Source: an uncultured Bacteroidales bacterium (GTDB lineage Bacteria > Bacteroidota > Bacteroidia > Bacteroidales > F082). Taken from it: 64,000 bases of DNA. The position numbers and the translations under genes are program-made. The notes below the pieces were generated by a model, which saw only the letters and a program-made list of their open reading frames with translations, searched no databases and was not told the DNA's origin. The DNA lies in assembly GCA_905234765.1 (NCBI GenBank), contig CAJOIF010000002.1:31009-95008 (forward strand), given 5' to 3'. Below are positions 4,461-27,115 of this stretch, piece after piece. Numbering within the stretch: position 1 is the first letter of the stretch; every line of letters starts with the position of its first letter.

Positions 4461-4490
4461 ATGACTAATAACTCGGAATATACCCTTAGT
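4461..4490 (-). promoter_or_regulatory. Two-block element upstream of fecR, candidate ECF-sigma promoter
   Basis: On the minus strand it reads ACTAAGGGTA, then 8 bases, then GTTATTAGTCAT. A-rich tracts lie immediately upstream (complement of the T runs at 4500-4530). Both blocks recur exactly, with the same 8-base spacing, at 27086-27115 before the giant adhesin gene. It resembles no Bacteroidota -33/-7 promoter, which fits an alternative sigma factor; the assignment to the adjacent ECF sigma is inference. Confidence 0.6.
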
Positions 4491-4528
4491 CGAAAACTCC
4501 TTTTTTTGCTTTTTTTTCGACTTTTTTT

Positions 4529-5071
4529 CTAAAGGTATTCTTTAAGCCCTTCCCTAAGCTGTTTGATGGCGGCCATCATATGGGCCTCGACTGTTTTTTG
4601 CGATATACTGAGTTTTTCGGCGATTTCTGCATACTTCAAGCCATCGAAGCGGCTGGCAAGAAACACTTCGCGACGTTTTTCGGGCATGGAAGCCAACACC
4701 TTGCGATAGGACGACTCCAGATTGTCGGACTGAAGCTTGTCCGATGGGTCTATCTCGTCTGCCTCGCCACTGTAAACCATCAGATGTGCTTCATTGTGGG
4801 AACGCTGTGTATTAATATAGGTGTAGGACGCATTGCGCACCGAACTCAACAGATAGGAATCGAAGGAGGCATTTATTTTCAGCCTTTCGCGCCCCGTCCA
4901 TATCTTTACAAACAGATCCTGGACAATTTCGGCAGCCACATCCTCGTCCGCGACAAAACGAAAACAAAAACGCACCATGGGAGCATAATAGAGGCGGAAA
5001 ATACGGTCAAAAGACGACTTGTCACCCGTCTTCATCCGCTCAACCAGACTATTTAACTCGCGTGTGTCCAT
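4529..5071 (-). CDS. ECF-type RNA polymerase sigma factor
   Basis: 180 residues, the normal ECF length. Region 2 is at about 20-90 (FDRIFRLYYAPMVRFCFRFV, then EIVQDLFVKIWTGRERL). Region 4 is at about 120-175, with the helix-turn-helix YAEIAEKLSISQKTVEAHM. It matches the Bacteroidota-expanded ECF family that pairs with FecR-type anti-sigma factors, and a fecR gene follows on the same strand. A housekeeping-type -7 box (5106-5114) precedes it, so the sigma gene appears to be driven by the primary sigma factor while fecR has a second, different promoter element. Confidence 0.93.
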   Translation of the reverse strand: MDTRELNSLVERMKTGDKSSFDRIFRLYYAPMVRFCFRFVADEDVAAEIVQDLFVKIWTGRERLKINASFDSYLLSSVRNASYTYINTQRSHNEAHLMVYSGEADEIDPSDKLQSDNLESSYRKVLASMPEKRREVFLASRFDGLKYAEIAEKLSISQKTVEAHMMAAIKQLREGLKEYL

Positions 5072-5105
5072 TAATTTAATAAGGTGCAGCCTTTACAATT
5101 GGCTT

Positions 5106-5114
5106 GCAAAGGTA
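5106..5114 (-). promoter_or_regulatory. -7 promoter box for the ECF sigma gene
   Basis: TACCTTTGC on the minus strand matches the Bacteroidota -7 consensus TAnnTTTG, 35 bases upstream of the sigma start. A TTG lies upstream at 5132-5134. Confidence 0.55.
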
Positions 5115-5263
5115 CACTTTTTCGACTTACACAACGCAACCCAGGAAGAAAAGTACGTCATTAATCAGGGTTAACACATTACTTATTACATTGAAAATCA
5201 TTTTTTTAACAAACAACAAATCAAATTTCAAATAAAAAATTATAGAAAAAGGGAAATAAAATC

Positions 5264-5293
5264 TTGTTGCATTGAAAAAAGTTGTATTTTTGC
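5264..5293 (+). promoter_or_regulatory. Promoter of rplU-rpmA
   Basis: TTG at 5264-5266 and TATTTTTGC at 5285-5293 with an 18-base spacer, a good Bacteroidota -33/-7 pair, giving a leader of about 40 bases before rplU. The AT-rich stretch 5160-5260 upstream holds no gene. Confidence 0.65.
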
Positions 5294-5337
5294 AGTCCGA
5301 AAAAAAAGAGAGTATCTATCTTATAAAGACATAGAAA

Positions 5338-5649
5338 ATGTACGCAATAGTAGAAATCGCAGGACAGCAATTCAAAGTGACGAAAGGACAGGAAATCTTC
5401 GTCAACAGGCTGCATGAGGAAGAGGGAAGCAAGGTTTCCTTCAACAGAGTTTTATTGATCGACAATGAAGGTTCGACGAAAGTGGGAGCCCCGACGGTAG
5501 ACGGTGCCAGTGTCGAAGCCACTGTGATGCAGCACTTAAAAGGCAACAAAGTTATCGTCTTCAAGAAGAAGAGAAGAAAAGGCTATCAGACTTCTAACGG
5601 TCACCGTCAGTATCTGAGCCAGATCAAGATTGAAAATATCACTGAATAA
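5338..5649 (+). CDS. rplU: 50S ribosomal protein L21
   Basis: 103 residues, the usual length of L21. It begins MYAIVEIAGQQFKV and contains the signature GNKVIVFKKKRRKGYQ and GHRQ near the C-terminus. L21 binds 23S rRNA domain I in the large subunit. It is followed 23 bases later by rpmA, the conserved rplU-rpmA order, and both are read from the promoter at 5264-5293. Confidence 0.98.
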   Translation: MYAIVEIAGQQFKVTKGQEIFVNRLHEEEGSKVSFNRVLLIDNEGSTKVGAPTVDGASVEATVMQHLKGNKVIVFKKKRRKGYQTSNGHRQYLSQIKIENITE

Positions 5650-5672
5650 AAAACCGAAAAAACTGAAGAGAT

Positions 5673-5945
5673 ATGGCACACAAGAAAGGCGTTGGTAGTT
5701 CCGATAACGGTCGCGAGTCCGCCAGTAAACGACTCGGAGTGAAACTTTTCGGTGGTCAAGCTGCAATCGCTGGCAACATCATCGTACGTCAGCGCGGCAC
5801 GAAGCACTACCCGGGCAAGAATGTTGGCATGGGCAAGGATCACACCTTGTATGCCAAGTGCGACGGCATCGTGGAATTTCAGAGAAAGAAGGGCGACAGA
5901 TCGTTTGTCAATATCGTCCCCGTCACAGCTGAAATCACCGAATAA
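5673..5945 (+). CDS. rpmA: 50S ribosomal protein L27
   Basis: 90 residues starting [16 protein letters not shown], the highly conserved L27 N-terminus, with [18 protein letters not shown] in the middle. L27 reaches towards the peptidyl-transferase centre. There is no N-terminal extension of the Firmicutes type. The gene is closed by a strong terminator 29 bases downstream. Confidence 0.98.
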
Positions 5946-5974
5946 GGCTTTTATTCATACCCATACAAAACATT

Positions 5975-6007
5975 CCCGACTGTCATTCCAATGCAGTCGG
6001 GTTTTTT
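5975..6007 (+). terminator. Rho-independent terminator of rplU-rpmA
   Basis: Stem CCCGACTG (5975-5982) with CAGTCGGG (5994-6001), an 11-base loop that can pair further, and a T6 run at 6002-6007. Confidence 0.9.
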
Positions 6008-6029
6008 AGTATAGTTACAACAAAATATG

Positions 6030-6038
6030 TATCTTTGC
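6030..6038 (+). promoter_or_regulatory. -7 promoter box for the lipoprotein/TPR gene pair
   Basis: TATCTTTGC lies 19 bases before the ATG at 6057 and decides the start, because the upstream in-frame ATG at 6027 overlaps the box. Confidence 0.6.
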
Positions 6039-6056
6039 ACATCTAAACATGCACCC

Positions 6057-6551
6057 ATGAGAACCATCAAGACAATTGCGGCCCTTGCCTGCATTCTGCT
6101 CGTCAGCTGCCACAGCCAGCCGACAACCTCTGTCGAAAAGATTGAGGCGCTGAAAAAGCAAGTACAGTCAGACGCCAAAGCACTGCAAGACCTTGACGAC
6201 ACCTATTTCCCAAAACTGCAACAAGACTTCCTGTATTGCGACTCACTGCTGCAATACCTCCCTGCCGAGCAAGTGGATGCCGATTTCGCCCAACTTAACC
6301 TGGCTCAAGCCTACATGGGCCAATTCGGCGACGTGAAGCCCATGATGCAACACAAAATGGACTACCTCCTCCTTCAGCTTGACCGACTCAAATCGGATGC
6401 CGAAAGCCACTATCTCAGCGATTCGCTGGTGCTCGTCTACCTCGAAACAGAACAACGTGTGGCCGACACCATCCACGCCCAGTTGGAGTATTTCCAAACC
6501 CGACTTCAAGGTAGTGAAGAAACGTTTGACAAACTGAAAAAGAGCAACTAA
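6057..6551 (+). CDS. Putative lipoprotein, coiled-coil
   Basis: 164 residues from the ATG at 6057. The lipobox LLVSC places the lipidated Cys at residue 18. The mature part is alpha-helical and charged (VEKIEALKKQVQSDAKALQDL and RVADTIHAQLEYFQTRLQ), consistent with a short coiled-coil periplasmic lipoprotein. No family is recognised. It ends 5 bases before the TPR gene, so the two are probably co-transcribed and may act together at the envelope. Confidence 0.75.
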   Translation: MRTIKTIAALACILLVSCHSQPTTSVEKIEALKKQVQSDAKALQDLDDTYFPKLQQDFLYCDSLLQYLPAEQVDADFAQLNLAQAYMGQFGDVKPMMQHKMDYLLLQLDRLKSDAESHYLSDSLVLVYLETEQRVADTIHAQLEYFQTRLQGSEETFDKLKKSN

Positions 6552-6556
6552 CAAAT

Positions 6557-8404
6557 ATGAAGTCACGTTGTATCTATATCATCGCCCTGCTTCTCGCCTT
6601 CCTGCAAGCAAACGCGCAAATCACCACCCCACCCAAAGGCAAGAGACAAAAGGCCGACCCCAACTGGGAGCAGCGGCAGATTGACGAACAACTGGCTGGA
6701 CAATATTTCCGCGAACAAGACTACGAAAAAGCGCAGGAAATATACAAAAAACTATACAACAGCAGCAAGCAGTACTACCATTTCCAACAATATATCGAAT
6801 GCTGCCTCCGACTGAGTCAATACAAAGAAGCCGAACATGAGCTGAAGGGTTTCGTCAAAGCCAATCCATCCCATAGCAAAAGTTTCGTTGACCTCATTTA
6901 CGTCTATACACTTGAAGAGAAAAACGACAAGGCCCAAAAACAATTCAACGAGATCTTGAACACGCTCCCCGAAAACGCCAGCGTCATTCGAAACCTGGGA
7001 AGTCAATTCCTGTCTCGGCAATTATACGAAATGGCAGCCGCTGTCTACGAAAAAGGCAACAAGATTCTCGCTGGCAAGGAAAGCTTCAACATGGATTTGG
7101 CTTACCTGTTCCATTCGATGGCCAATTATCAAGAAGCCTTTCGTTATTATTTCATCGAATTGGAAGCTAACCCTGGACAATACAACAACATCAAAAACCG
7201 ACTTCAGAACCTTCTGTTTTATGACGTGAACAAAAGCATCACTGACGAACTACGTATCGCGCTGCTGAAACGCACACAGGAGAAACCTGACAACATAGAG
7301 CTAGCCCAACTGTTGACCTGGCTCGCCATTCAAGAAGGCGATTATGACATTGCCTTGGCCCAATGCCTGAGCATCGACCGAAAGACCAACAGCCAAGACG
7401 GGCAAATCAACAATCTGTCGGCCATTTGCCTCAACAACAAACAGTTCAGCATCGCCAAGGAAGGCTACGACTATCTTGTTGACAAAGGCAAGAGCTGCCC
7501 GTTTTACGGACAAGCCCTTGCAGGATCCATCAACGCAGAATACCAGCAACTGAAAGCAAACAACAGTAGCAACAACAAGACTTATGAACGCCTCTTGAAA
7601 CGGATTGACGAAGCCTACAGCAGCATCAACACCAACGACTTGACCAAACTGACGGTGATACAATCCGACATCTTGGCCTATCAACTGGATCGTACAGACG
7701 AGGCCATTGCCTTACTAACCAACACCTTATCCAAAGTCGGAAACAATCAGGACAAAGCCTCGCTGAAACTCAAGCTTGCCGACATCTATCTGAACAAGAA
7801 TGAGGTTTGGGAAGCCACTCTGCTTTACAGCCAAGTCGACAAGAGCATGAAAGAAGAGCCATTGGGACATGAGGCCCGATTCAAAAACGCGCAACTCCGT
7901 TATTTCATAGGCGAATACGAATGGGCGGAAAGTCAGTTGAAAGTGCTGAAAGCCGCCACCTCCAAGCTCATCGCGAACGACGCCATGACGCTCTCGCTTG
8001 TCATTAAGGACAACCTCGAAGTCGACACTACAGGTAGAGAGCTCAAACGATTGGCGCAAGCAGATTATAAGATTTACCAACAGCGCGACGACGAAGCCAT
8101 TACCCTACTTGACGAGATTATAGGCAACGGGAACGAAGTCAGCAAGCCACACGCACTGTTCCGCAAGGGTGAGATCATGGAGAAGCGCAAACGTTTTGAG
8201 GAGGCAGAGCAATTGTATTTGCAGATCGTGGAGCAATATTCCGACAGCTATATGGCTGATGCCGCCTTGATGCAAGCCGCTTTGATTGAACAGAACCATC
8301 TAAAAAACAAGGAATTGGCCAAGCAACATTACGAGAAGTTGATTGACGATTACCCGACGAGCATCTATACCGCGCAGGCGAAGAAAAACTATAGAAAGTT
8401 GTAA
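6557..8404 (+). CDS. Secreted tetratricopeptide-repeat protein
   Basis: 615 residues with a signal peptide (MKSRCIYIIALLLAFLQANA). Almost the whole mature chain is TPR-like helical pairs, for example AGQYFREQDYEKAQEIYKKL, AVIRNLGSQFLSRQLYEMAA and HALFRKGEIMEKRKRFEEAE. The last repeats (YMADAALMQAALIEQ, AKQHYEKLIDDYPTSIYT) resemble YbgF/BamD-type outer-membrane assembly repeats. It follows the lipoprotein gene by 5 bases. It probably acts as a periplasmic scaffold; its partner is unknown. Confidence 0.85.
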   Translation: MKSRCIYIIALLLAFLQANAQITTPPKGKRQKADPNWEQRQIDEQLAGQYFREQDYEKAQEIYKKLYNSSKQYYHFQQYIECCLRLSQYKEAEHELKGFVKANPSHSKSFVDLIYVYTLEEKNDKAQKQFNEILNTLPENASVIRNLGSQFLSRQLYEMAAAVYEKGNKILAGKESFNMDLAYLFHSMANYQEAFRYYFIELEANPGQYNNIKNRLQNLLFYDVNKSITDELRIALLKRTQEKPDNIELAQLLTWLAIQEGDYDIALAQCLSIDRKTNSQDGQINNLSAICLNNKQFSIAKEGYDYLVDKGKSCPFYGQALAGSINAEYQQLKANNSSNNKTYERLLKRIDEAYSSINTNDLTKLTVIQSDILAYQLDRTDEAIALLTNTLSKVGNNQDKASLKLKLADIYLNKNEVWEATLLYSQVDKSMKEEPLGHEARFKNAQLRYFIGEYEWAESQLKVLKAATSKLIANDAMTLSLVIKDNLEVDTTGRELKRLAQADYKIYQQRDDEAITLLDEIIGNGNEVSKPHALFRKGEIMEKRKRFEEAEQLYLQIVEQYSDSYMADAALMQAALIEQNHLKNKELAKQHYEKLIDDYPTSIYTAQAKKNYRKL

Positions 8405-8420
8405 ACCACTCTGCCCATAG

Positions 8421-8446
8421 ATTGCCACGCTTCGCTCGCAATGACA
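8421..8446. repeat. REP-like intergenic hairpin
   Basis: ATTGC (8421-8425) pairs with GCAAT (8438-8442) around the core cacgcttcgctc. The sequence resembles the short palindromic repeats with GCGAAGCG cores that are scattered in many Bacteroidota genomes. Only one copy is in this window. The rest of the gap 8405-8488 is simple AACTGAATAACTGA repeats. Confidence 0.45.
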
Positions 8447-8488
8447 TAGGCAAACTGAACAACTGAATAACTGAATAACTGACAACTA

Positions 8489-9268
8489 ATGCAAGAAGTA
8501 CGACCCAAGAAAGCCCTAGGCCAGCATTTTTTGACCGACCAAAACATAGCCCAACGCATCGTGGAGCAACTGTCGCCCGACGTGGAGACCGTCATCGAGG
8601 TGGGTGCCGGCACGGGCGTTTTGACCCAATACATGGTGAACGACATCCTTGACAAATTCTACGTCATCGAAATCGACAAGGAATCCATCGCCTATTTGGA
8701 GAAGCATTTCCCCATGCTTGGCGAGCGGCTGATTGAGGGCGATTTCCTCCGCACCGACCTCAGCCAATTCGGGCAACACAACACGGCCATCATCGGCAAC
8801 TTCCCCTATAATATCAGCAGCCAGATTTTCTTCCAAGTGCTAAAATACAAGGAACAGGTCATCGAAGTTGTTGGCATGGTGCAGAAAGAGATGGCAGAGC
8901 GCATGGCCGCCAAGGAAGGCAGCAAAACCTACGGTATCCTGAGTGTATTAATGCAAGCTTGGTACGACATCGAGTATCTGTTCACCGTACACGAGAATGT
9001 CTTCAATCCGCCACCAAAGGTGAAGTCGGCGGTCATCAAAATGCGGCGCAACGCCGTCACCGACTTGGGCTGCGACGAAAAACTGTTTGTGAGCATCGTC
9101 AAGCAGGCCTTCAACCAGCGCCGCAAGACCATGCGCAACTCGCTGCGCCCGATGCTCAGCCCTGAAATCATCGAAAACGAAGTCTTCAACAAACGGCCGG
9201 AGCAGTTATCGGTGCAGGAGTTTATTGATTTGACAAATCTGATTGGGGAAAAACCAATACAGCATTAA
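8489..9268 (+). CDS. rsmA: 16S rRNA dimethyladenosine transferase
   Basis: 259 residues. It N6-dimethylates A1518 and A1519 of 16S rRNA (E. coli numbering) using S-adenosylmethionine. Visible motifs: KKALGQHFLTD at the start, the SAM motif EVGAGTGVLTQ, the catalytic NFPYNISSQI loop, and FNQRRKTMRNSL near the C-terminus. The 3' end overlaps the convergent permease gene by 4 bases. Confidence 0.97.
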   Translation: MQEVRPKKALGQHFLTDQNIAQRIVEQLSPDVETVIEVGAGTGVLTQYMVNDILDKFYVIEIDKESIAYLEKHFPMLGERLIEGDFLRTDLSQFGQHNTAIIGNFPYNISSQIFFQVLKYKEQVIEVVGMVQKEMAERMAAKEGSKTYGILSVLMQAWYDIEYLFTVHENVFNPPPKVKSAVIKMRRNAVTDLGCDEKLFVSIVKQAFNQRRKTMRNSLRPMLSPEIIENEVFNKRPEQLSVQEFIDLTNLIGEKPIQH

Positions 9269-10500
9269 TTGGCTTTCAGTGAAGTACTTTCTTTCCGCAT
9301 TGCGTGGCGCACCGTGAGGAAAGCCGAAGTGCAGCCCACCACCAGAATCGTGGCGAAAATCAGCAGCACGTCCTTGAGTTTCAACATGACGGGATAGGCA
9401 TCCACGACATAGTTGCCATCCGTGCCAAACTTCACGAAACCGAATTGCTGCTGCAACAACACCAAAACAACACCCAGCAGCAGGCCGATAATACCACCTG
9501 CCACTGAAATCAGCAGGCCTTCATTCATGAAGATGCGCTGAATCAAGCGTTTGTCGGCACCCATCGACTTCAGAATTTCAGTGTCTTTACGCTTGTCAAT
9601 CATCAACATAGAAAGCGATCCGACCACATTAAAGGTAGCCAAAATCAGAATAAACGTAAGGATAACATAAACCGCCCATTTCTCAGAGCGCATGATTTTG
9701 TATAGGGTTTCCTGTTGCTCCTGTTGGTTCTTCACGGAATAGTCAGCCCCAATGATAGCCGTAACCGATTTTTTCACCTTTTTAATGTCGGCATTCGGGG
9801 CAGCAAAAACCTCTACATTCGTTGCTTTATCCTCATATTCAAGCAATTCTGAAAGCCAATCAAAGGGCACAAGCACCAGTTTCTCGTCCTGTTCCTGCCC
9901 AGTAGAGAACACGTTGCGCACCGTCAGCACATCGGAGTTGAAACTGTTTTCAAGGCTCATCATGGAAGCATTGCCTCGCTTAGGCACATAGACGCGCACC
10001 ATCGCATAGGGATTGTAAGCACTGATGCCGAGATACCATGCCACACCTGCGCCGGGGATGGCGAAATCATAGTCGCCATCAGAGAGCAACAAGCCTTCTT
10101 CGTTGAGAACGACCTCATCCAAACGGCCAATTTCCTGGTACTCCAGTCCAACGCCCTTCACCTGACCGATATGCTGCTTGTCGTTGGCTCGGAAAAGGGC
10201 ATCCTCGGTTATCGTGGGAATCACATAATCCACGCCTTGGATTTCTTTGAGCTGACCCAAAGGGAAAGCCGCCAAGTCGATGGTCTTGCCCTTTACTGCT
10301 GCAATTTGCAGGTCAGGCGTGAGGCGGTTGTTCATCGAGGAAATCACCTTCTCCAAGCCGTTGAATGCCGATAGCACTACGATAAGCGCAAACGAGCCGA
10401 CACTAATACCCAAAATGGAAATCCATGTGATGATATTAATGAGGTTGTGGCTCTTTTTGGCCAACAGATAACGGTTTGCTATGAACAACGGGAGTCTCAC
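9265..10500 (-). CDS. FtsX-like / LolC-LolE type ABC permease
   Basis: 411 residues. One N-terminal membrane helix follows the conserved start (LPLFIANRYLLAKKSHNLINII, membrane part ISVGSFALIVVLSAF). A long periplasmic MacB-like domain follows, with three C-terminal helices (WAVYVILTFILILATFNVVG, GLLISVAGGIIGLLLGVVLV, VLLIFATILVVGCTSAF). This is the layout of lipoprotein-releasing LolC/E permeases that move lipoproteins from the inner membrane to LolA. No ATPase gene (lolD) is adjacent. The start overlaps the rbfA stop as ATGA. Confidence 0.87.
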   Translation of the reverse strand: MRLPLFIANRYLLAKKSHNLINIITWISILGISVGSFALIVVLSAFNGLEKVISSMNNRLTPDLQIAAVKGKTIDLAAFPLGQLKEIQGVDYVIPTITEDALFRANDKQHIGQVKGVGLEYQEIGRLDEVVLNEEGLLLSDGDYDFAIPGAGVAWYLGISAYNPYAMVRVYVPKRGNASMMSLENSFNSDVLTVRNVFSTGQEQDEKLVLVPFDWLSELLEYEDKATNVEVFAAPNADIKKVKKSVTAIIGADYSVKNQQEQQETLYKIMRSEKWAVYVILTFILILATFNVVGSLSMLMIDKRKDTEILKSMGADKRLIQRIFMNEGLLISVAGGIIGLLLGVVLVLLQQQFGFVKFGTDGNYVVDAYPVMLKLKDVLLIFATILVVGCTSAFLTVRHAMRKESTSLKAN

Positions 10501-10841
10501 TTGTCGGGATGCAACAGATTGTCAATGTTTTCGATATAGTCGAGCGAGTCGTCCTCGATAAAGCGCAACTCAGGCACGACGCGCATTTGGTGACGGATAC
10601 GGTTGCCGAGCAAGCCTCGAATGGCTTTGCCGTTTTGGGCGACTTCCTCTACGACTTTCTTCTTGTCATCCACGCCAAAAACACTCAGATATACACGCGC
10701 ATACGAGAGGTCCGATGTAACATTGACGCGGGTTACGGTGATCATCAGCGAAGGCACTTTGGGCTTCAGTTCCTTCTGGAAAATATCACCTAGTTCTTTC
10801 AGTATCAGCTTGTTTACTTTTTCTAATCTTTTTCCGTCCAT
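10497..10841 (-). CDS. rbfA: 30S ribosome-binding factor A
   Basis: 114 residues, typical length, with a KH-like fold. Features: RLEKVNKLILKELGDIFQ at the N-terminus, MITVTRVNVTSDLSYARVYLSVF in the centre, and IRHQMRVVPELRFIEDDS near the C-terminus. It acts in late maturation of the 30S subunit. It overlaps the permease start by 4 bases, so the two are translationally coupled. Confidence 0.95.
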   Translation of the reverse strand: MDGKRLEKVNKLILKELGDIFQKELKPKVPSLMITVTRVNVTSDLSYARVYLSVFGVDDKKKVVEEVAQNGKAIRGLLGNRIRHQMRVVPELRFIEDDSLDYIENIDNLLHPDK

Positions 10842-10928
10842 AATTCCAAATTCAAAGATTCAAAATTTAAAGATTTAAGATTCAAAAATTGATGAGGTTG
10901 CAAAAATAGGCAATTCTTTTGAAACCAA
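10842..10928 (-). promoter_or_regulatory. rbfA promoter and ATTCAAA-repeat leader
   Basis: Minus-strand -7 box TATTTTTGC is at 10908-10900, with TTG at 10928-10926 (17-base spacer). The leader 10842-10890 is a run of imperfect heptamers ATTCAAA/ATTTAAA, a simple tandem repeat that contains no gene. Confidence 0.5.
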
Positions 10929-10996
10929 TCGGAAAAGCACTCAGTAAACTGAAATTGTTTATTTTTGCTGAACGAAACATAAAGAAAAGCATCCCA

Positions 10997-12571: not shown

Positions 12572-12580
12572 TCGTCAATA

Positions 12581-18566: not shown

Positions 18567-18605
18567 AAGGGCGGCTCCCGATTGGAAGCCGCCCTTCGTT
18601 TTTGT
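18567..18605 (+). terminator. Rho-independent terminator after rsmD
   Basis: Ten-base stem AAGGGCGGCT (18567-18576) / AGCCGCCCTT (18587-18596) followed by CGTTTTTG. It lies between convergent genes and the A-run on its other side could serve the minus strand as well. Confidence 0.88.
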
Positions 18606-18611
18606 GTTGGT

Positions 18612-18647
18612 GTTTGTAGATACGCGGCTAGCCGCGTATCTACAAAC
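18612..18647. repeat. Perfect 36-bp palindrome
   Basis: The sequence from 18612 to 18647 equals its own reverse complement, centred on GGCTAGCC at 18629/18630. The symmetry continues outward with one extra base (GTTGGT on the left, ACCAAC on the right). It sits 10 bases after the 3' end of the giant adhesin gene. Confidence 0.85.
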
Positions 18648-18657
18648 CAACCGTCAT

Positions 18658-21600
18658 TTATCTAACGACTGTGACACGATGTGTGCTCACGCCGTTAGTG
18701 GTGGCGATACGAACCATGTACATGCCAGATTCGAACTCAGCCATGTTGATAATCATCTCATCGGTGTCGACATCCATGTCGTAGAGCACCTGACCCACCA
18801 GGCTCACCACCGTGACGTGCTGCATTGCAGTAGCCTTGATGGTCACATTACCATTGGTCGGGTTCGGGTAGAGGGCAATGTTGCCATTGAGCTCATCCAC
18901 ACCCGTGGTCGAGATAATCACATAGTTGACAGCCGGGTTCTCGCCAGAGATGGCGGGTTCTGACTCGCAATAGCCGTAGTCGGCGCGGACCTGATAGTAG
19001 TAAGAACCAGAGGTCTCAGGCGTGTCGATGTACTCGTAGTAGGTCATGCCTTCCACCACTTCAACTTCACCGATCAAGGTGTAGTTGCCGTTGGCTGAGG
19101 TCGAACGATACACGTTGTACTTCAAGAGGCCAGAGCTACGATCCGGGTTCTCACCCCACCAAATCCTGATCTGTTCGGTTCCGACAAGAGCTTCGCCGTA
19201 GATCGGTGCACCAGCAGCGCAGAGACCTTGAGCACCTTGGCAGACCGGGCAGCCCATGGACCAACCGTAGTTGTGGTCGGGCAGGGTCATTTCACCAGGA
19301 TAGATCGGGCGGACACAATACTCATGCTCACCAAACTCACCTTCGTGCATGAAGTCGCGGTCGGTCGGGCTGGCAAAGGCGAGGTATTCGCCATCCATCG
19401 TGATGAGGAAGCCAATGATGTCGACAGGAGGCAGGATACCGCAGTCGGTGCTGCCAGTACCGTTCACCATGCTGAAGTTGATGTTGCAAGGACTGTTGGA
19501 GTAGTTGGTGATAACGAGGATGTAGTATTCACCAGACTGAGCATTTTCGATGATGCAGTGCTCGGTATCATAGATGGAGTAGCTGCAGTCAACAACCTTA
19601 TCAGCGGTCAAGCCGTTCGGGCAAGGCGTGGTCGGGTCGTCGAAGGGGCCCCAGCAGCAGAAGTCGATGTCTTCCTGCGGAGTGCTATACATGTAGATAT
19701 CCAGGTCACCAGGATCACCTATACGCATGTAGTACCAAGCCGGGTTCGGCGTGGAGTACAGGCAGTCATAGTAAGGACCAGGCTCGCCGCTACCAGCGTT
19801 GACGCCAGCCGGGAACTCGTACATACCATTGTCGGTGCAGAACGGATCAGCGAATTCGCACATGTTGTTCTCACGCGATTGGATGTACATATCCATCATC
19901 AGCGAGTTGACGAAGCTCATCGGCATTTCAGCCTTGTAGGTGCGAGCCATCATAGCGGCTTCAGCCTTCTCCATTTGACCGAATGCGATGTTGTTGTTGT
20001 AACCGAACTCAGCGATAGCCTCTTCGAGGTTGATGTCTTCATAACCAGCAGCGGGGCTCACGATGAACATGCCAGCGGCTTCGCCGTTGATGACATCGAA
20101 ACGAACATCATTGCTCAGGTTGTGGAGGTAGATCACACGCTCGTCGAAGTTGGCGACATCGGTGATGTTGAGGGCATAAGTGCCGTTGGGCAGCATGCCG
20201 CTTTCGAAGGCTTCGTATTCGACACCGCCCTTAGCACCGCCACCGGCGTAGGGGTTGAAGCCGTTTTCAAACGTCCACTCGATGTGGTTACCTTGGTTGG
20301 TGAGGTCAACATTGACTTCATCAACAGGTCCCCAGTGATCGCAAGGCTCATACACCCATTCAACGGGATCGCACCAAGGACCTTGGCCAGTGCTGTACAT
20401 GCAAGCGACCTTGCAGAGGTAGTGTTCACCCTCAACCAACGGAGCGTTGTAAGGCTCGTTGTAGGACAGCTGGCAGAACGGATAGATGGTGTTGTGGTTG
20501 AAGATCGGCACACCGTCGATGCTGGTGCACATCACCTTATAATACTCAAGGTGACGGTCGCCACTCTTGGCACCGGTAGTCAGTTCAACGTCGTCGATGC
20601 ACATGATGTACTGGTCGTAGCAGTTGAAGTGACGGATGGCGATGTACTTCTGGCCAGCGTAGGCGCTCAGGTCGACAGAGTAGTTGTACCAGTTGCCGAG
20701 TCTGTTGCCGGCACCGTCGCGCGAAGCGCGAATGTCACCGCTCTTGGCACCGCTCTTGGCTGTCAGCGTCCACTCGTTGACCATCGTCCAGTCCGTACCG
20801 TTGTCGGAAACAAACACGCCGAAGTGGTCAGCTGCATAGCTGGCGTCAGTGGCAGCAGCCCAGAAGCTGAAGGTTGAGCCGTTGACGATGTTCACCTGAG
20901 GCGAAACGAGATACTCATCCGGATTGATGGCACCCACACCGTTGATGTAGGAACCGCTGCACATGGCATCGCTGCCGCTGTGGTACCAGTCAAGCGTCAG
21001 GCTTGCATAGTAGGTCCAAGTGGTCGGGATGGCACTAGTAGCGCACCAGGTGTAGCCATCGTTGTTGCCGTCAATGACAGTCCAGTCAGCCGGCAGGCCA
21101 CCTTCGAAGTCAACGCTGAAGGTATCGCCGTTGCCGCCGCCAGTGCCGCCACCGCCGCCACCAGGCAGACCATTGCCGCCGATTTGCGGGTCAGTGGAAT
21201 CCCACATGGCCCAACCAGTACGGCTGACGTAGAGGTTCTCAACGCCGTAGATGATCTCAATCATCACATAACGGAGGTCAGTGGGCGTCCAGATGCTCAC
21301 GCTGTCATAAATGGTCTCGTAACCAACGTGTTCAACCACCACTTGGTATTCACCCTTGCGGAAGTTATCCCACAGGTAGTAACCAGACTCATCGAGAGTG
21401 ATGTCATAGCCACCGTAGGTCAGTTGCTCATACTCGTTGTAGTTGGTGAAGGTCACCGTGGTGCCCTCCGGGCTGTCGGCGCTGTTCAACAGGACGTTGA
21501 CAGAGACGTGGTCGAGGTACATATCCTTGTCGAGGCAGTTCGACCAGACGGTCTCACTTTCGCGCTCAAGGGCGAGTTGGTTGAGGTTGTTGGTGTTACC

Positions 21601-24600
21601 ACCAGTGTTGCCACCGCCGCCACCGTTACCAGCGGTGATAGTGACATCGTCAATCCAGATTTCATATTGGTCATAGTTCACATCGTGGAAGGCAATCCAC
21701 ACTTCTTGACCAGCATAAGCGCTCAGGTCAACGATGTGAGCACGCCAGTTCTCATAACGGTCAGCCATGTGGCGCGATTCAGCCTTGGCATTACCAGCCT
21801 TGGCACCGCCGTTCCAGACTTCTGTGAAGTCAGCAGCTGTCGGGTTGGCAGCAGTGGCAACGCAGATTGAGAAGTTTTCAGGATAGCTGTCGTTGGCATT
21901 GTCAGCAAAGAAGGAGATAGTGGAACCAGCTCCAATGCTGTACTTCTGAGGCGACACGAGATAACTATTGGTACTGTAGGCGCCAACATAGTCAACGTAC
22001 GAGTAGCACATGGCAAAGCCACTACCACCATGGGCAAGAGTGGTGTAGTCATAGCCACCAGGGTTGTCATCGCTATGCAACCAGGTGCCTTCATTAGCAT
22101 TGACGTCGATGACAGTCCAGCCATCGAGGCCGCCTTCGAAGCCGTAGGTAAACTCAGCGCGAGTGCCGCCCATAGCGACAGGCTCAGTCCAGCTGATTTC
22201 GCCTTCGATTTCTTCACCGCGGTTGCCGCTATACACGGTACCGACACCCCACTTGTAGACACCAGCCGGGAGGTCAGCCCATTCAACGTCGATGTAGACG
22301 GTGTCAGGCACCCAAACGGTGGCCAAGAGGACGGTGTTCTCCTCGGTGTAAGGACCGTCGTTGTAGCAGTTCGTACGATACACTCTGTAGTGATCCAAGC
22401 TACGGGTTTCAGGCATACCCTTGCCAGGCTCGCCAATGGTGATGTCGTCGACATCGAGATAGAACATGTCGGTGCAGTTGAAGTGACGGATAGCCACATA
22501 ACCGTTGCCGCTATAGGCGCTCAGGTCGACAGTGTATTCGTACCATTCGCCTTGAGCACGACCGCTGCGGCTGTGGATAGCAGCCTTACCGCCATCGCTC
22601 ACGCTCTTGGCACTCATCGTCCATTCCTGAACCATGGTGAAGGAGCTCGGGTTGGTGTTGGTAGTAGAGACGGCCACGCCGAAGTGCTCAGCAGCGTAGC
22701 TGGCATCCTGGGCGCAAGCATAGAATCTCACAATACCACCGAGTTGCACCTGAGGCGAAACGAGGTAGTTGTCGGGATAGAGGGCACCGTAGCTGTTGCT
22801 GTAGCTCTGGCTCAGCACGCAGTCGTTGGAGCCGTTGTGACCGTAGCCAGTGCTCATGATCTCGCTGGCAACATACCAACCGAAACCGTCACCGTCGGCA
22901 TCGACGCTGGTCCAGCCTTGCATGCTGCTGTCTTCGAAGTCGTAAGTCATGCCCGGAACAGCGGGTTCGGGTTGCTTGTAGAAGCTGATGTAGTCAACAT
23001 AGAAGCAGTCGTCGTTGCTGTTCACGCTGCCGTCCTTGGTGTATCTCCACTGGAAGGTGTGGGTACCGGCGGTGATGTCGAAGGTTCTCTCAGCCCAGTT
23101 GCCGTTGCCGGTGTAGCTGCCTCTCTGGACACCGTCGATGTAGAAGTAACCGTAGTCCCAGCTGCTCTCGCAGGAGATCTTGCCGTAGAAGCTCATCAGG
23201 CCGTCGGCGGGGATTTCAACCTCAACGGTCATGTTGCTCACCACGTTGGCCACGCCGGCGCCGCCGCTCTTCATGCAGTATTGGCCTTCATACGGGTTGG
23301 TGGTGGTGATGCTCCAAGGATAGGTAGGATCGATCTGCCAATCGAACAGGCTGAAGTCGCCAGTCTCGAAGGGCTCGATGATATCGCTGCCAGGCAGGCC
23401 GCAGCCCCAGTACACCTTCACGAACGGGCTGTTCGGATCCAGGCTGTCGGGGAAGTACTCAGCGATGACAGCGCAGACAGGATCGAAGTTCTCGTCGAGG
23501 ATGTAGTCATACGGGCTGGCCGTCTGGTTGTAGTTGATGTTGATCGGGTTGCCCTGGACAGGCTCGTAGATGGTCTGATAACCAGTGCAGCTGGCCTGGC
23601 CGTTGTAAGTACCGGCATAGATGTGGCCGCTGTAGTAGCCTTGAGCATTGGTCGTCAAGTTGTAAGTGTGGCTGTCACCGAACTCGTCGGTACCAATCAT
23701 AGTAACGGTGGCGTTGGCGATGCCGGTGGTGCCGTCCTGCTCGTAGACGTGACCGTTCACGTCGCCGTAGCCAGAAACCTTCACGGTAACGGTGTTGGAC
23801 GGAGCGCTCTCACCTTCGTCGTACACGGCGGTCACATAGTAGACATAGCCAGCCATGTTGTAGGCCAGAGGACCGTCGGTGTAGGTGGTGGCACCGATGT
23901 TGTTCACCTGGGTGCTGCCGATGAGTTCACCGTCACGGTACACGTTGTAGAAACGGTAGGTGCGGTCGACAACGGCGTTCCAGTTCAGGGTGATGGTCTC
24001 GTCGTTGAAGACAGTGTAGTCAACAGCGGTGAGGTTCTGAGGAACGTTGAGGTGGGTGGTGAAGCCCCAAACCGGGCTGCTCACGCCATCCGGGCAACCG
24101 TCATTCTTGAATTCCACTCTCCAGAAGTAGTTGGTGTTGTTCCAGAGGTTGGTGACGGTGTAGCTGTTGGCCATGTTCTCCGACCAGTCGGTCATGACGG
24201 TCTGAGGATGGCTGGGCTCCGGGTGGTAGGTGCTACCGAAGATCAGACGCCAAGCAGTGGCGTATTCGGGAACCATCCAACGCAGCGTGACGCTGGCGGG
24301 TTCAAGATCGTCAGCATTGTCTGCAGGTTCCGGGTTGAGGAGGGTGTTACCTTGGGCATCAGCAATGATCGGGCAAGGCATGTTCTCAACATTGATGTTC
24401 ACGGTGTAATCAGCCTGCGTGGCGGAGGCAACCAGATAGTAGGTGCCAGCCGTCAGGCCAAGGTTCTCGATGACGGGACCAGCGCTCACGTTCAGAGCGG
24501 TGCTGCCACCACCAGGAGTGATGTTGAGTTGGATGTTGCTGCGGTAGGTGTACAGCGTCTTGCTGCCACCGTAGCTGGCCAGGTTGTACGGGTCAGGATT

Positions 24601-26922
24601 GGTGCTGTCGCTGTAGTAACGCAGAGCCATGTTGGCCGAGTTGGGCGACGTGGTCTGACGCCAGGTGTAGCTCGTGCCAGGATAACCGCTCGTGCCGTCG
24701 TAGAAGGCCACCAGCAGGTTGCTCGTGCCGTCATACTGGAACGGGGTGTCGAGGTCGAAGGTGTACCAACCGGCAGCGGTCGGGGCGATGCTACCCGTCC
24801 ACACGACGTCGCTGGCTGCGAGAGGCTCGCAGTCGGTCGTGCTGGCGAAGCTGTCGCGAGTCACGTTCTTCATGTACATCGTCACATTGTTGGCGGTGTA
24901 GGCAGTGCCGTAGTTGTAGTAGAAGCTAATGCTGTTGATGGTACCGGCGGTGCCAATCTCATCGGCAGTGTAGATCTGCTCCGTGCAGGAGTAGTTGAAG
25001 TAGTTGTCGATGGGGAAATAGTAGGTCGTGCCAGTGCCTTCGCCAATCTCAACCAAGTCGCGGTTGCCGCCTTCGCGGTTGCCACCCTTCATGATGGTGT
25101 TGGCGCGGTTGGTGGTGGTGCCACCGTAGCTGTAGCCACTGCTACCAAAGGTGTAGGACGTGGTAGCCATGTTGTAGGCACCGTCCGAGTCGTTGTAGGA
25201 GTAGCCGCTAGCGGTGAAGTCCTGGTCACTCACTTGCCAGTTGATGCCAGAAGCCCAAGCGCCGTTGTTACGCTGCACAGAAACAAGGATGCTGCTGTGG
25301 CCGTCCCAAGCGAAGCTGCCTTGGTTGAAGATGAACTCGTTCCACTGGTTGGCAGTGGGAGTCATGTTGCCTTCATACACCTTGGTCATGCCGCCAGTCA
25401 CCTCAGAGGAAGAGCCGATGGAAGTCATGTCCACGTTGCCCATCCAGATGGTGATGTTGCTCTGCAGGTTGCCGTTGGAGGCCGTGCAGTACCAGCTGAG
25501 GCTGGTCATGGGGGCGCGGGTCACGCCAGCTTCCTGAAGCTCGGCAGCGAGATAGAGCTGCTGGCTGATGGAATAGTTGTAGAAGCAGTAGAACGGCATG
25601 TAACCAGAAGTGCTGGTACCCGTGCCGAGTTGAGCCTCAAACGGGCCAGCGGCAGCACCGCCACCAGCGGCGGCGTTCAGACCTTGGTAGTTGTTGTCAG
25701 CCATGGGGCCGCCTTGGCCGTAGAAGTCCTCGGTGTAGAGGGCCACCTTGCCGTTTTCGTCGTTCTCATCAACGTTGGCGCTGATGATCACATCGTTGTC
25801 AACCGTGAACTTGTAAACGGCATCCACGCCTTCTTCGATTTCGGGGAAGGGCAGGGTGTAGTCGTTGTGCAGTTCGGTGGGAGTGATTTGTGAAGGAATG
25901 CCTTGGTAGCTGAAGCCAGGAGTCACAGTGCCGAGGTCGTAGGCCATTTCAACCACATCCGGGATGGCGGGGTTGTAAGGCTCCACGTTGATGTTCCAAA
26001 TGGCGGCAGTACGGCCGGTGCCATAGATGGCGACCATCTGCCAATCGGTGTAGTTCGACTCGCCGGTGTTCAGCAACACATCGATGTCTTCATCGTGGCC
26101 AATCTGAACGGGGAGTTCGGGAGCTACGAGGGTGAAGTACTCCTCAGGAGTCCAATCGAGGTTGGTGATTGTCGTGGCAGCGCCATCGTTGTGAATCTGG
26201 AAGGTGAAAGGTTCCATCCAGCAGCCATTCGGGCGAGGACCAACGAAAACGGTGTCGACCTGTACGCCGTCTTGGTAAGCGAAAATCTGTTCACCAGCGC
26301 CAGCACCACCGCCACCACCAGGAGTGATGTCGAGAGCCACAACGTTCTTTTTAGCCACTAGAGTACCAGTCACACCAGGAGTGGTGGGATCATACACAGT
26401 GCCGTCTCGATAAGCATAAATGGCTTGGTTGCCATTAGCTGCCATTTCAACACCACCCAGGCCGCTGCTCCACTGGCCAGTCACATCCTGGAAGCAAATC
26501 ACCAGGTTGCCGTTGCCGCTGTAGGCAAAAGGCGTGCTGAGGGTGATTGCCGTCTCAACGGGGGTGGAAACACCGTTGGGCATGGTGAACGAGGCGACCA
26601 TGTCGCTGGCCGTCATGCTCACCCATGAGGTGGCGCTGGCAAACGTGCTTTCGCTCACTTCCTTCATATAAACATTGATGTTGCGAGCGTAGCTGGAGCT
26701 GTTCTTCAGCCACATCGTGAGTGTGTTAATCGTACCCGCCATGCCAATCTCGTCAGCAGTGTAAATCTGCTGCGAAATCGAATAATCGTACAGGGTGTAC
26801 CCTGGCAAGTACGCATTCGTCGTGGTTGACGTAGGATCTCCTATCGTCACCACGTCCGCCTTCGCCACGCCAATAAAGGCGAGCAAAAGCGTCATCATCA
26901 AAGAAAATACTTTCTTTTTCAT
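18658..26922 (-). CDS. Giant T9SS-exported adhesin with cleaved-adhesin domains
   Basis: 2754 residues. A signal peptide (MKKKVFSLMMTLLLAFIGVAKA) is followed by three related modules with the phrase YSISQQIYTADEIG or close variants (about 24-200, 430-620, 625-815). Next come a fibronectin III domain (about 960), a carboxypeptidase-regulatory-like domain (about 1050; GHVYEQDGTTGIANATVTM), and a MAM/jelly-roll-like region (about 1180). Three cleaved-adhesin domains start near 1326, 1589 and 1937 (DFEDSSMQGW, GFEGGLDGW, DFEGGLPADW, each with YLVSPQ). The end is a T9SS type A sorting domain (IALYPNPTNGNVTI ... VTVVR). Cleaved-adhesin domains are those of the gingipain/HagA haemagglutinins of Porphyromonas gingivalis. 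No protease catalytic site is seen, so adhesion to protein or glycan is the likely role. Upstream element 27086-27115 links it to the ECF sigma operon. Confidence 0.93.
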   Translation of the reverse strand: MKKKVFSLMMTLLLAFIGVAKADVVTIGDPTSTTTNAYLPGYTLYDYSISQQIYTADEIGMAGTINTLTMWLKNSSSYARNINVYMKEVSESTFASATSWVSMTASDMVASFTMPNGVSTPVETAITLSTPFAYSGNGNLVICFQDVTGQWSSGLGGVEMAANGNQAIYAYRDGTVYDPTTPGVTGTLVAKKNVVALDITPGGGGGAGAGEQIFAYQDGVQVDTVFVGPRPNGCWMEPFTFQIHNDGAATTITNLDWTPEEYFTLVAPELPVQIGHDEDIDVLLNTGESNYTDWQMVAIYGTGRTAAIWNINVEPYNPAIPDVVEMAYDLGTVTPGFSYQGIPSQITPTELHNDYTLPFPEIEEGVDAVYKFTVDNDVIISANVDENDENGKVALYTEDFYGQGGPMADNNYQGLNAAAGGGAAAGPFEAQLGTGTSTSGYMPFYCFYNYSISQQLYLAAELQEAGVTRAPMTSLSWYCTASNGNLQSNITIWMGNVDMTSIGSSSEVTGGMTKVYEGNMTPTANQWNEFIFNQGSFAWDGHSSILVSVQRNNGAWASGINWQVSDQDFTASGYSYNDSDGAYNMATTSYTFGSSGYSYGGTTTNRANTIMKGGNREGGNRDLVEIGEGTGTTYYFPIDNYFNYSCTEQIYTADEIGTAGTINSISFYYNYGTAYTANNVTMYMKNVTRDSFASTTDCEPLAASDVVWTGSIAPTAAGWYTFDLDTPFQYDGTSNLLVAFYDGTSGYPGTSYTWRQTTSPNSANMALRYYSDSTNPDPYNLASYGGSKTLYTYRSNIQLNITPGGGSTALNVSAGPVIENLGLTAGTYYLVASATQADYTVNINVENMPCPIIADAQGNTLLNPEPADNADDLEPASVTLRWMVPEYATAWRLIFGSTYHPEPSHPQTVMTDWSENMANSYTVTNLWNNTNYFWRVEFKNDGCPDGVSSPVWGFTTHLNVPQNLTAVDYTVFNDETITLNWNAVVDRTYRFYNVYRDGELIGSTQVNNIGATTYTDGPLAYNMAGYVYYVTAVYDEGESAPSNTVTVKVSGYGDVNGHVYEQDGTTGIANATVTMIGTDEFGDSHTYNLTTNAQGYYSGHIYAGTYNGQASCTGYQTIYEPVQGNPININYNQTASPYDYILDENFDPVCAVIAEYFPDSLDPNSPFVKVYWGCGLPGSDIIEPFETGDFSLFDWQIDPTYPWSITTTNPYEGQYCMKSGGAGVANVVSNMTVEVEIPADGLMSFYGKISCESSWDYGYFYIDGVQRGSYTGNGNWAERTFDITAGTHTFQWRYTKDGSVNSNDDCFYVDYISFYKQPEPAVPGMTYDFEDSSMQGWTSVDADGDGFGWYVASEIMSTGYGHNGSNDCVLSQSYSNSYGALYPDNYLVSPQVQLGGIVRFYACAQDASYAAEHFGVAVSTTNTNPSSFTMVQEWTMSAKSVSDGGKAAIHSRSGRAQGEWYEYTVDLSAYSGNGYVAIRHFNCTDMFYLDVDDITIGEPGKGMPETRSLDHYRVYRTNCYNDGPYTEENTVLLATVWVPDTVYIDVEWADLPAGVYKWGVGTVYSGNRGEEIEGEISWTEPVAMGGTRAEFTYGFEGGLDGWTVIDVNANEGTWLHSDDNPGGYDYTTLAHGGSGFAMCYSYVDYVGAYSTNSYLVSPQKYSIGAGSTISFFADNANDSYPENFSICVATAANPTAADFTEVWNGGAKAGNAKAESRHMADRYENWRAHIVDLSAYAGQEVWIAFHDVNYDQYEIWIDDVTITAGNGGGGGNTGGNTNNLNQLALERESETVWSNCLDKDMYLDHVSVNVLLNSADSPEGTTVTFTNYNEYEQLTYGGYDITLDESGYYLWDNFRKGEYQVVVEHVGYETIYDSVSIWTPTDLRYVMIEIIYGVENLYVSRTGWAMWDSTDPQIGGNGLPGGGGGGTGGGNGDTFSVDFEGGLPADWTVIDGNNDGYTWCATSAIPTTWTYYASLTLDWYHSGSDAMCSGSYINGVGAINPDEYLVSPQVNIVNGSTFSFWAAATDASYAADHFGVFVSDNGTDWTMVNEWTLTAKSGAKSGDIRASRDGAGNRLGNWYNYSVDLSAYAGQKYIAIRHFNCYDQYIMCIDDVELTTGAKSGDRHLEYYKVMCTSIDGVPIFNHNTIYPFCQLSYNEPYNAPLVEGEHYLCKVACMYSTGQGPWCDPVEWVYEPCDHWGPVDEVNVDLTNQGNHIEWTFENGFNPYAGGGAKGGVEYEAFESGMLPNGTYALNITDVANFDERVIYLHNLSNDVRFDVINGEAAGMFIVSPAAGYEDINLEEAIAEFGYNNNIAFGQMEKAEAAMMARTYKAEMPMSFVNSLMMDMYIQSRENNMCEFADPFCTDNGMYEFPAGVNAGSGEPGPYYDCLYSTPNPAWYYMRIGDPGDLDIYMYSTPQEDIDFCCWGPFDDPTTPCPNGLTADKVVDCSYSIYDTEHCIIENAQSGEYYILVITNYSNSPCNINFSMVNGTGSTDCGILPPVDIIGFLITMDGEYLAFASPTDRDFMHEGEFGEHEYCVRPIYPGEMTLPDHNYGWSMGCPVCQGAQGLCAAGAPIYGEALVGTEQIRIWWGENPDRSSGLLKYNVYRSTSANGNYTLIGEVEVVEGMTYYEYIDTPETSGSYYYQVRADYGYCESEPAISGENPAVNYVIISTTGVDELNGNIALYPNPTNGNVTIKATAMQHVTVVSLVGQVLYDMDVDTDEMIINMAEFESGMYMVRIATTNGVSTHRVTVVR

Positions 26923-27085
26923 AATGAAATGATAGTTAGTTAATAATTAAGTGAATTGAATTGTTTCTGTGTGTAGAAATGAGAAACGCACCAGTGCCAA
27001 GGGGCATGGTGACAGCATTTTTGCTAGGCATCGAAGAAAAAAAGTAATGCATAGTAAACGCGTTTAACATTTTGTCGACATCTGT

Positions 27086-27115
27086 ATGACTAATAACTTG
27101 TGTTTTACCCTTAGT
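27086..27115 (-). promoter_or_regulatory. Second copy of the two-block element, upstream of the giant adhesin
   Basis: Minus strand: ACTAAGGGTA, 8 bases, GTTATTAGTCAT, preceded by long A-runs (complement of 27123-27160). 22 of 30 positions are identical to 4461-4490, all differences being inside the 8-base spacer. It lies 163 bases before the adhesin start; the rest of 26923-27171 contains no gene. Confidence 0.6.

What the first reader, a model, noticed from the sequence alone, without database searches (positions are those of the whole stretch)
4461..27115. Identical two-block promoter-like element before fecR and before the giant adhesin
On the minus strand, 4461-4490 and 27086-27115 both read ACTAAGGGTA + 8 variable bases + GTTATTAGTCAT, so 22 of 22 block positions are identical with exactly 8 spacer bases. 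In both cases long A-tracts lie just upstream. I see no third copy in the window. One copy precedes the anti-sigma gene of an ECF operon, the other a 2754-residue T9SS adhesin 22 kb away. The simplest explanation is the recognition site of the linked ECF sigma factor, making the adhesin part of its regulon and giving autoregulation of the anti-sigma gene. The sigma gene itself has a normal -7 box.
Basis: partly seen in the sequence, partly recalled or inferred. Interest (0 to 1): 0.82.

Follow-up and report, generated by a model that had tools for sequence, protein, structure and literature searches.

The report
Sigma-factor promoter shared by fecR and adhesin
By comparison of many genomes, the repeated DNA element is very probably the start signal read by one dedicated sigma factor, which in related uncultured Bacteroidales controls its own surface-sensing operon and very large secreted adhesins and little else; no experiment has tested it yet.

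Summary
In detail: two exact copies, none expected by chance. The exact 22-base motif occurs in 15 stretches among 84,980 species, all uncultured Bacteroidales/Bacteroidia or 'bacterium F082'. In one GTDB family (173 genomes), 40 of 42 genomes with the close sigma ortholog have the motif, against 3 of 131 without it (Fisher p = 3e-33); the two misses carry diverged copies before fecR. Of 103 distinct core sites (CTAAGGGTA-N15-GTCWT) 38 precede fecR, 57 adhesins of this family, 8 neither.

Four genomes with a sigma 47-50% identical keep the promoter core, also before putative secreted proteins.

Unexpected: adhesin mRNAs begin with paired perfect palindromes whose letters change but symmetry stays (19 of 28 leader types, 0.33 expected; 0 of 41 fecR leaders), and a leader ORF usually ends on the adhesin start codon (45 of 49; 13 nt short in the window). 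All evidence is comparative; sigma dependence is unproven.

The parts
27086..27115 (-). Promoter copy before the giant adhesin: ACTAAGGGTA-N8-GTTATTAGTCAT; core AAGGGTA-N15-GTC
4461..4490 (-). Promoter copy between the sigma gene and fecR
4529..5071 (-). ECF sigma factor, 180 aa (TIGR02985 Sig70_bacteroi1, above cut-off)
5107..5114 (-). TACCTTTG, ordinary Bacteroidetes -7 box of the sigma gene (consensus recalled)
   Evidence: read
3429..4430 (-). FecR-type anti-sigma factor, 333 aa (FecR + FecR_C)
2063..3331 (-). STN domain joined by a linker to an 8-strand outer-membrane-type barrel, 422 aa; likely signal transducer
1..2060 (-). Right-handed beta-helix protein, cut by the window edge; full-length relatives of about 1000 aa end in a T9SS Por_Secre_tail
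18658..26922 (-). 2754-aa T9SS adhesin (3 Cleaved_Adhesin stretches, CarbopepD_reg, Por_Secre_tail)
27073..27080 (-). Palindrome 1 of the adhesin leader (TGTCGACA), near the predicted transcription start
27055..27066 (-). Palindrome 2 of the adhesin leader (TAAACGCGTTTA)
26989..27011 (-). Possible RNA hairpin in the adhesin leader, weak covariation support
26936..27070 (-). Leader ORF, 44 codons; stops 13 nt before the adhesin ATG here (in most relatives the stop overlaps that ATG)

Best explanation
The element is the promoter of the linked ECF sigma factor. RNA polymerase carrying this sigma reads AAGGGTA as the -35 element and GTC(A/T)T as the -10 element, 15 bases apart, helped by A-tracts upstream. 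Without a signal FecR holds the sigma at the inner membrane. A surface signal, probably sensed by the T9SS-exported beta-helix protein together with the outer-membrane barrel, passes through the periplasmic STN domain to FecR and frees the sigma. The sigma then transcribes (1) fecR, the STN/barrel gene and the beta-helix gene, resetting and renewing the sensor while its own gene keeps an ordinary promoter, and (2) one to a few giant T9SS adhesins. Shown by comparison: the motif, its placement, its near-exclusive link to fecR and adhesins, its co-occurrence with the sigma, and the operon order. Inferred: recognition by this sigma, the signal path, the feedback and the function of the adhesins.
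For: Two exact copies, none in shuffles. 15 exact stretches among 84,980 species, all uncultured Bacteroidales/Bacteroidia or bacterium F082. 29 sites at up to 3 mismatches in 14 genomes, reversed control 0. 83 of 86 distinct sites at up to 2 mismatches precede fecR or an adhesin, 82 by homology and L116 by its signal-peptide start. 95 of 103 exact-core sites do. Motif and close sigma ortholog co-occur 40/2/3/128 in 173 genomes, p = 3e-33 (reversed control 3 hits). 40 distinct sigma loci, window included, each have a promoter-like core within 3 mismatches just after the sigma gene (most of these loci were fetched through the motif). AAGGGT is near-invariant and GTC invariant in 39 fecR and 49 adhesin promoters. 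In 393 genomes of the order 6 match, 3 of them known members of the family; the reversed control gives 23 hits, so the other 3 are at or below chance. In four genomes with a sigma 47-50% identical, 9 of 10 sites precede fecR or a putative secreted protein, control 1. The STN/barrel gene follows fecR in 16 of 17 loci with at least 1.9 kb after fecR. SprA, a T9SS core protein, is in 12 of 12 sigma genomes tested, of 42.
Against: No transcription start, sigma deletion or in vitro transcription exists. G106 and G116 have a changed -35 (GGGTC), but the nine sigma residues that set both apart lie at positions 33-123, only the last at the edge of region 4 (Pfam match 123-172), so no matching change was found inside it. 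No promoter-bearing adhesin was found in G106 or G116; their adhesin homologues are mostly weak, one in G116 is 76% identical over 54 residues at a contig end, and upstream regions there were not read. G125 and G136 have promoter-bearing adhesins but no sigma hit at E <= 1e-30; completeness of these MAGs is not given. L087, in a sigma genome, has a core site with no recognised target. The exact-core search of 173 genomes had 9 reversed-control hits. Adhesin homologues occur in 93 of 173 genomes, so many must be controlled otherwise. The -10 flank is less conserved at adhesins than at fecR.
Confidence: 0.92

Rival explanations
1. The element is the operator of another DNA-binding regulator shared by the sigma operon and the adhesins, and the promoters are ordinary ones.
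For: The motif is long and strict (CTAAGGGTAAA, AGTT), more than many ECF promoters need (recalled), and the -10 flank differs between the two gene classes.
Against: The constant 15-base gap between AAGGGTA and GTC, the fixed orientation towards the gene, the A-tracts, the close co-occurrence with this sigma and retention of the core next to a sigma of 47-50% identity point to sigma recognition. I did not search for a co-distributed regulator gene.
Confidence: 0.05
2. The two copies are a recent duplication or gene-conversion tract, or a dispersed repeat, with no regulatory meaning.
For: The blocks are identical and similarity runs about 27 bases upstream and 18 downstream, 77% over 77 bases.
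Against: That extension is mainly A-tracts and common promoter context. Copies recur in dozens of genomes, 95 of 103 in front of the same two gene classes, while the spacer varies.
Confidence: 0.01
3. A different ECF sigma of the same genomes reads the motif, and the linkage to this sigma gene is incidental.
For: These genomes have 6-18 first-look candidates for ECF-like genes (not all need be ECF genes), and G125 and G136 have the promoter without a found ortholog.
Against: One promoter copy sits directly after this sigma gene in 40 of 40 distinct loci examined, and a core persists at the same place in several distant relatives. Promoters inside ECF operons are normally read by the linked sigma (recalled).
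Confidence: 0.03

Closest known systems
FecI/FecR/FecA-type cell-surface signalling (ECF sigma, FecR anti-sigma, TonB-dependent transducer)
   Same: ECF sigma, FecR-type anti-sigma and an outer-membrane-type protein with an STN signalling domain, encoded side by side.
   Different: The partner has an 8-strand barrel, not the 22-strand TonB-dependent receptor with plug (PMC11637429, passages seen); a T9SS beta-helix protein is added; the targets are giant adhesins instead of a transporter.
Dma/Das dual-membrane-spanning anti-sigma systems of Bacteroides
   Same: ECF sigma controlled through an inner-membrane anti-sigma part and a barrel.
   Different: In Dma the anti-sigma domain, transmembrane helix, tether and barrel are one protein (PMC13088901, passages seen); here they are two proteins that could meet through STN and FecR. 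The terms STN and FecR do not occur in that main text.
PorXY-SigP regulation of T9SS genes in Porphyromonas gingivalis, with the T9SS-tailed protein PorA as surface input
   Same: ECF sigma tied to T9SS, with a protein bearing a T9SS C-terminal domain relaying a surface signal (PMC7712824, abstract seen).
   Different: SigP controls T9SS component genes through a two-component system; its suggested motif C(T)AAA(G/C/T)A(T)A(C)T(A/G)A differs, and the main text has no FecR or anti-sigma term (PMC4800418, passages seen). Here cargo adhesins are controlled.
HagA/gingipain-type Cleaved_Adhesin proteins (recalled)
   Same: Cleaved_Adhesin domains and a T9SS tail.
   Different: A 2754-aa protein in which Pfam finds no protease domain, with a shared leader and signal peptide in many paralogues, under a dedicated ECF-type promoter.

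Membership tests
ECF sigma factor (sigma-70 family) | Regions 2 and 4 only, family profile above cut-off | tested here: met
   Sigma70_r2 and Sigma70_r4_2; TIGR02985 157.6 bits against a 126.4 cut-off
ECF-dependent promoter | -35 and -10 blocks with about 15-17 base spacing (recalled), upstream of its own operon and of target genes | tested here: met
   AAGGGTA-N15-GTC before fecR and adhesins
ECF-dependent promoter | Transcription from it depends on the sigma | not testable with these tools
   needs transcription-start mapping and a sigma mutant
FecR-type cell-surface signalling | FecR-family anti-sigma encoded next to the sigma | tested here: met
   FecR and FecR_C domains; a FecR match follows the sigma in 40 of 40 distinct loci
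FecR-type cell-surface signalling | Outer-membrane partner with an STN signalling domain | tested here: met
   STN above cut-off in the window and L015 proteins, just below it in L006 (26.2 against 28.4 bits); gene follows fecR in 16 of 17 loci with enough sequence. The STN part of the model has low confidence
FecR-type cell-surface signalling with a TonB-dependent transducer | 22-strand barrel with plug domain | tested here: not met
   8 long strands in a 422-aa protein; PDB matches are small barrels, OmpA, NspA and OmpW with target TM-scores 0.62-0.71; model mean pLDDT 58.6, most barrel-strand blocks 84-96
[quoted passage not shown]
   FecR and the STN/barrel protein are separate genes
T9SS cargo | C-terminal sorting domain | tested here: met
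   Por_Secre_tail in the adhesin and in two full-length beta-helix relatives; SprA in 12 of 12 sigma genomes tested
Known structured RNA leader | Match to an Rfam family at its gathering score | tested here: not met
   Only tRNAs reach gathering scores in the window and in 10 adhesin loci
Translationally coupled leader ORF | ORF ending at or over the next start codon, translated | tested here: inconclusive
   45 of 49 leaders reach the adhesin start, 23 of 26 dissimilar ones against a null mean of 7.5; codon-position and synonymous-change tests are weak; the window copy stops 13 nt short

The most novel reading that the evidence does not exclude
The sigma-dependent adhesin mRNAs carry a new kind of leader: two or more loopless perfect palindromes starting near +1, whose letters change between copies while the symmetry is kept, followed by a translated leader ORF that ends on the adhesin start codon. 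Together they would form a second control layer, for instance mRNA-mRNA pairing through the palindromes or a dimeric protein bound at the start site, with ribosomes handed from the leader ORF to the adhesin, under a surface device in which an exported T9SS protein senses for the T9SS adhesins.
Probability: 0.25. Interest if true: 0.8.

Novelty: new variant of a known kind. Interest (0 to 1): 0.62.

Why it matters
It gives a concrete promoter code for an ECF sigma of uncultured Bacteroidales and ties a FecR surface-signalling device to T9SS adhesins, not to nutrient uptake. The predicted regulon is small enough to test completely: one sensor operon and a few giant surface proteins. The small STN-barrel partner and the T9SS beta-helix protein suggest a transport-free form of surface signalling. 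The palindromic, ORF-bearing leaders are a separate puzzle whose strength across genomes makes it directly testable.

Tried and rejected
Recent duplication or dispersed repeat: rejected from the pattern across genomes, although similarity extends a little past the motif. Phage origin: 8 stretches in viral contigs match AAGGGTA-N8-GTTATTAGTCAT, but they share one sequence context unrelated to sigma, fecR or adhesin; treated as chance in one phage lineage, not pursued. Known RNA family: none beyond tRNA. Simple RNA hairpins for the palindromes: with no loop or a one-base centre the stem of site 1 would be only 2-3 bp in most copies; not accepted. Conserved consensus RNA fold: only 2 of 12 pairs show two-sided changes, covariation term -0.17; weak. 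Leader ORF as a conserved peptide: codon-position entropies 0.69/0.73/0.76 and synonymous fraction 0.297 against 0.285 and 0.211 in the other frames give no clear coding signal; only the position of the stop is striking, and the conserved AT-rich end shared by the leaders weakens the null. Sigma region 4 co-varying with the changed -35 of G106 and G116: not found. Common promoter with SigP: the published motif differs.

Limits of the counts. In some searches identical contexts were merged. The 49 leaders are those whose adhesin start fits a MKKK/MQKK pattern; eight adhesin leaders (L040, L048, L086, L088, L090, L186, L188, L189) were therefore missing, and one of the 33 fecR leaders was a wrong site in L079. 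One search repeats the palindrome count with all 57 adhesin leaders; these numbers are used. The leader-ORF count was not repeated. The palindrome windows were set after seeing the data, and leader types are defined by their palindromes. Single leaders are not all significant: L040 79, L086 313 and L088 403 of 2000 shuffles reach the observed value. Twelve of the 49 leaders (11 divergent ones and L046) were left out of alignment A3. The distant sigma loci read (8) are 8 of 43 such genomes, chosen mostly from the top of the list.

Full report
Observation. The two copies are present exactly as described and are the only ones in the window at up to 3 mismatches, with none expected from shuffles. 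Both point towards the gene that follows: fecR, starting at 4430, and the adhesin, starting at 26922. A core of CTAAGGGTA-N15-GTC(A/T)T also finds only these two. Similarity between the two places runs over 77 bases at 77%, mainly A-tracts and motif.

Distribution. The window's own genome is not held. The exact motif was found in 15 stretches of genome contigs, titled uncultured Bacteroidales, uncultured Bacteroidia or bacterium F082; where the title names a source it is buffalo, roe deer or horse. In 14 genomes there were 29 sites at up to 3 mismatches and none for the reversed control. In the GTDB family of one of them (173 genomes) 43 genomes matched at up to 2 mismatches; the reversed control gave 3 hits. 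In a sample of 393 genomes of the order 6 matched, 3 of them family members already counted; the reversed control gave 23 hits there, so outside the family the matches are at chance level.

What lies downstream. Of 86 distinct sites at up to 2 mismatches (the two window sites included), 83 lie before fecR of an ECF operon or before a homologue of the adhesin; the exceptions are L053, L054 (only 71 bases follow) and L087. Of 103 distinct exact-core sites, 38 precede fecR, 57 precede adhesins and 8 neither; 7 of these 8 lie in genomes without the close sigma ortholog, and one of the 7, in G031, later proved to precede a putative secreted protein beside a related sigma. The exact-core search had 9 reversed-control hits.

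Link to the sigma. A close ortholog (61-83% identical; the next relatives are 50% or less) is in 42 of 173 genomes, and 40 of these carry the motif; of the 131 others 3 do (Fisher p = 3e-33). The two sigma genomes without a hit, G106 and G116, have a diverged copy before fecR. G125 and G136 have promoter-bearing adhesins without a sigma hit at E <= 1e-30. In 40 distinct sigma loci, window included, a promoter-like core follows the sigma gene each time, though most loci were fetched through the motif.

Promoter anatomy. Across 39 fecR and 49 adhesin copies AAGGGT is nearly invariant and GTC invariant; GTT before the -10 is invariant at fecR and looser at adhesins. AAGGGTA-N15-GTC has the same layout as GGAACTT-N15-GTC of sigma-E (recalled). 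A/T tracts precede both classes. Adhesin starts lie mostly about 160 bases and fecR starts mostly about 30 bases after the element. The sigma gene has an ordinary TAnnTTTG box, so the sigma most likely drives its anti-sigma and sensor, not itself.

The device. Behind fecR lies a 422-aa protein with an STN domain and a C-terminal barrel. An AlphaFold2 model shows eight long strands, mostly with high confidence; the STN part and linker have low confidence, mean pLDDT 58.6. Foldseek puts the barrel with OmpA, NspA and OmpW. The gene follows fecR in 16 of 17 loci with at least 1.9 kb after fecR; the exception is L104. The fourth gene encodes a right-handed beta-helix protein of about 1000 aa with a T9SS tail; in the window it is cut at the edge. 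It was found in 9 of 11 related loci examined; L104 has neither gene in the 1.95 kb after fecR and L162 ends too early. SprA is in 12 of 12 sigma genomes tested. Classical surface signalling uses a 22-strand TonB-dependent transducer whose signalling domain contacts the anti-sigma (PMC11637429, passages seen); the small barrel here does not look like a transporter.

Older origin. Eight loci around more distant sigmas (44-50% identical) keep sigma, fecR and STN/barrel; the beta-helix gene was found in 7 of 8, not in L216. An exact core lies between sigma and fecR in three (G028, G030, G031), one base off in G029; in G032 I read 16 bases of spacing, and the rest are degenerate. In G028-G031 the pattern TAAGGGTAAA-N13-GTC has 10 sites: 4 before fecR, 5 before proteins with signal-peptide-like starts (judged by eye) and 1 inside a gene; the reversed control gave 1. 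One of the five ends in a T9SS tail; three others were read for 1550-2173 aa and one for 346 aa before the DNA ends.

The adhesin leader. Near the predicted start and about 15 bases later sit perfect palindromes that differ between copies (site 1: TGTCTAGACA, TGTCGACA, TGTCTGACA, TGTCATGACA, TGTAATTACA, ACTAATTAGT, AAAGATCTTT; site 2: for example TAAACGCGTTTA, TTATCGCGATAA, TAACTGATCAGTTA, AAAAGCGCTTTT, TTTTATGCGCATAAAA). Of 57 distinct adhesin leaders 52 have site 1, 50 site 2 and 48 both; of 41 fecR leaders behind the same promoter 1, 5 and 0 do. Of 28 leader types 19 have both, against 0.33 expected in shuffles (an earlier, smaller count is). Some divergent leaders (L086, L088) lack them at these places. 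An ATG-started leader ORF reaches the adhesin start in 45 of 49 leaders, 38 ending in TGA overlapping the ATG and 7 in frame; 23 of 26 dissimilar leaders do so against a null mean of 7.5 and a maximum of 13 in 400 shuffles. In the window copy it ends 13 nt early. Evidence that the peptide itself is conserved is weak, and the covariation of the predicted RNA fold is small. Coupling between neighbouring ORFs is known (PMC12548453, abstract seen); for the palindromes I have no explanation.

Literature. I searched papers on ECF sigmas in Bacteroidetes, SigP and T9SS, Cleaved_Adhesin with sigma factors and rumen, leader ORFs and ECF, adhesin, T9SS and FecR together. In the listings and the passages seen I found no report of this motif, regulon or leader. 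The library holds only open-licence papers, so this does not show that none exists. The palindromes were not searched for in papers (one search failed).

Verdict. It is a variant of FecR-type surface signalling with a small-barrel partner and adhesin targets. The leader is the most novel part and the least understood.

Noticed in passing
L016-L023: Eight phage contigs share one context with AAGGGTAAAACAC(A/G)CGTTATTAGTCAT; it looks like a phage regulatory region, unrelated to this sigma.
   Followed up: partly
L175, L176, L193 (position 1500): A different conserved stretch with CTAAGGGTATTTTAC(T/A)TTT(T/A)AATTGTCTT in genomes G173, G169 and G171 (the same 29 bases also hit in G172), with no ORF of 90 aa or more starting within about 500 bases downstream.
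   Followed up: partly
L087:2001-2029: A core promoter site in sigma-bearing genome G099 with no recognised fecR or adhesin downstream; possibly a decayed adhesin locus or another target.
   Followed up: no
window 42919-42991, 41291-41363, 37798-37871: Three tRNA genes are the only Rfam matches in the window.
   Followed up: no
L148-L154 (genomes G120, G128, G103, G011, G089, G110, G001): A second set of adhesins whose promoter reads TCGCGCGTCTT or GCGCGAGTCTT where others have GTTRTTAGTC, with the same GTC and leader and nearly the same -35 (L154 reads AAGGGAA); perhaps a weaker promoter class.
   Followed up: partly
L084, L096, L106, L116: Several promoter-bearing adhesins lie close to contig ends, as expected if repeated adhesin sequence breaks assemblies; adhesin counts per genome are therefore lower bounds.
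   Followed up: no
L054 (G039): A two-mismatch site at a contig end reads GTAAGGGTAAAAAGCTAGTTGTTTGTCTT, close to the promoter of the distant sigma clade (AAGGGTAAA...TTGTTTGTC); it may be a real site of that clade.
   Followed up: no
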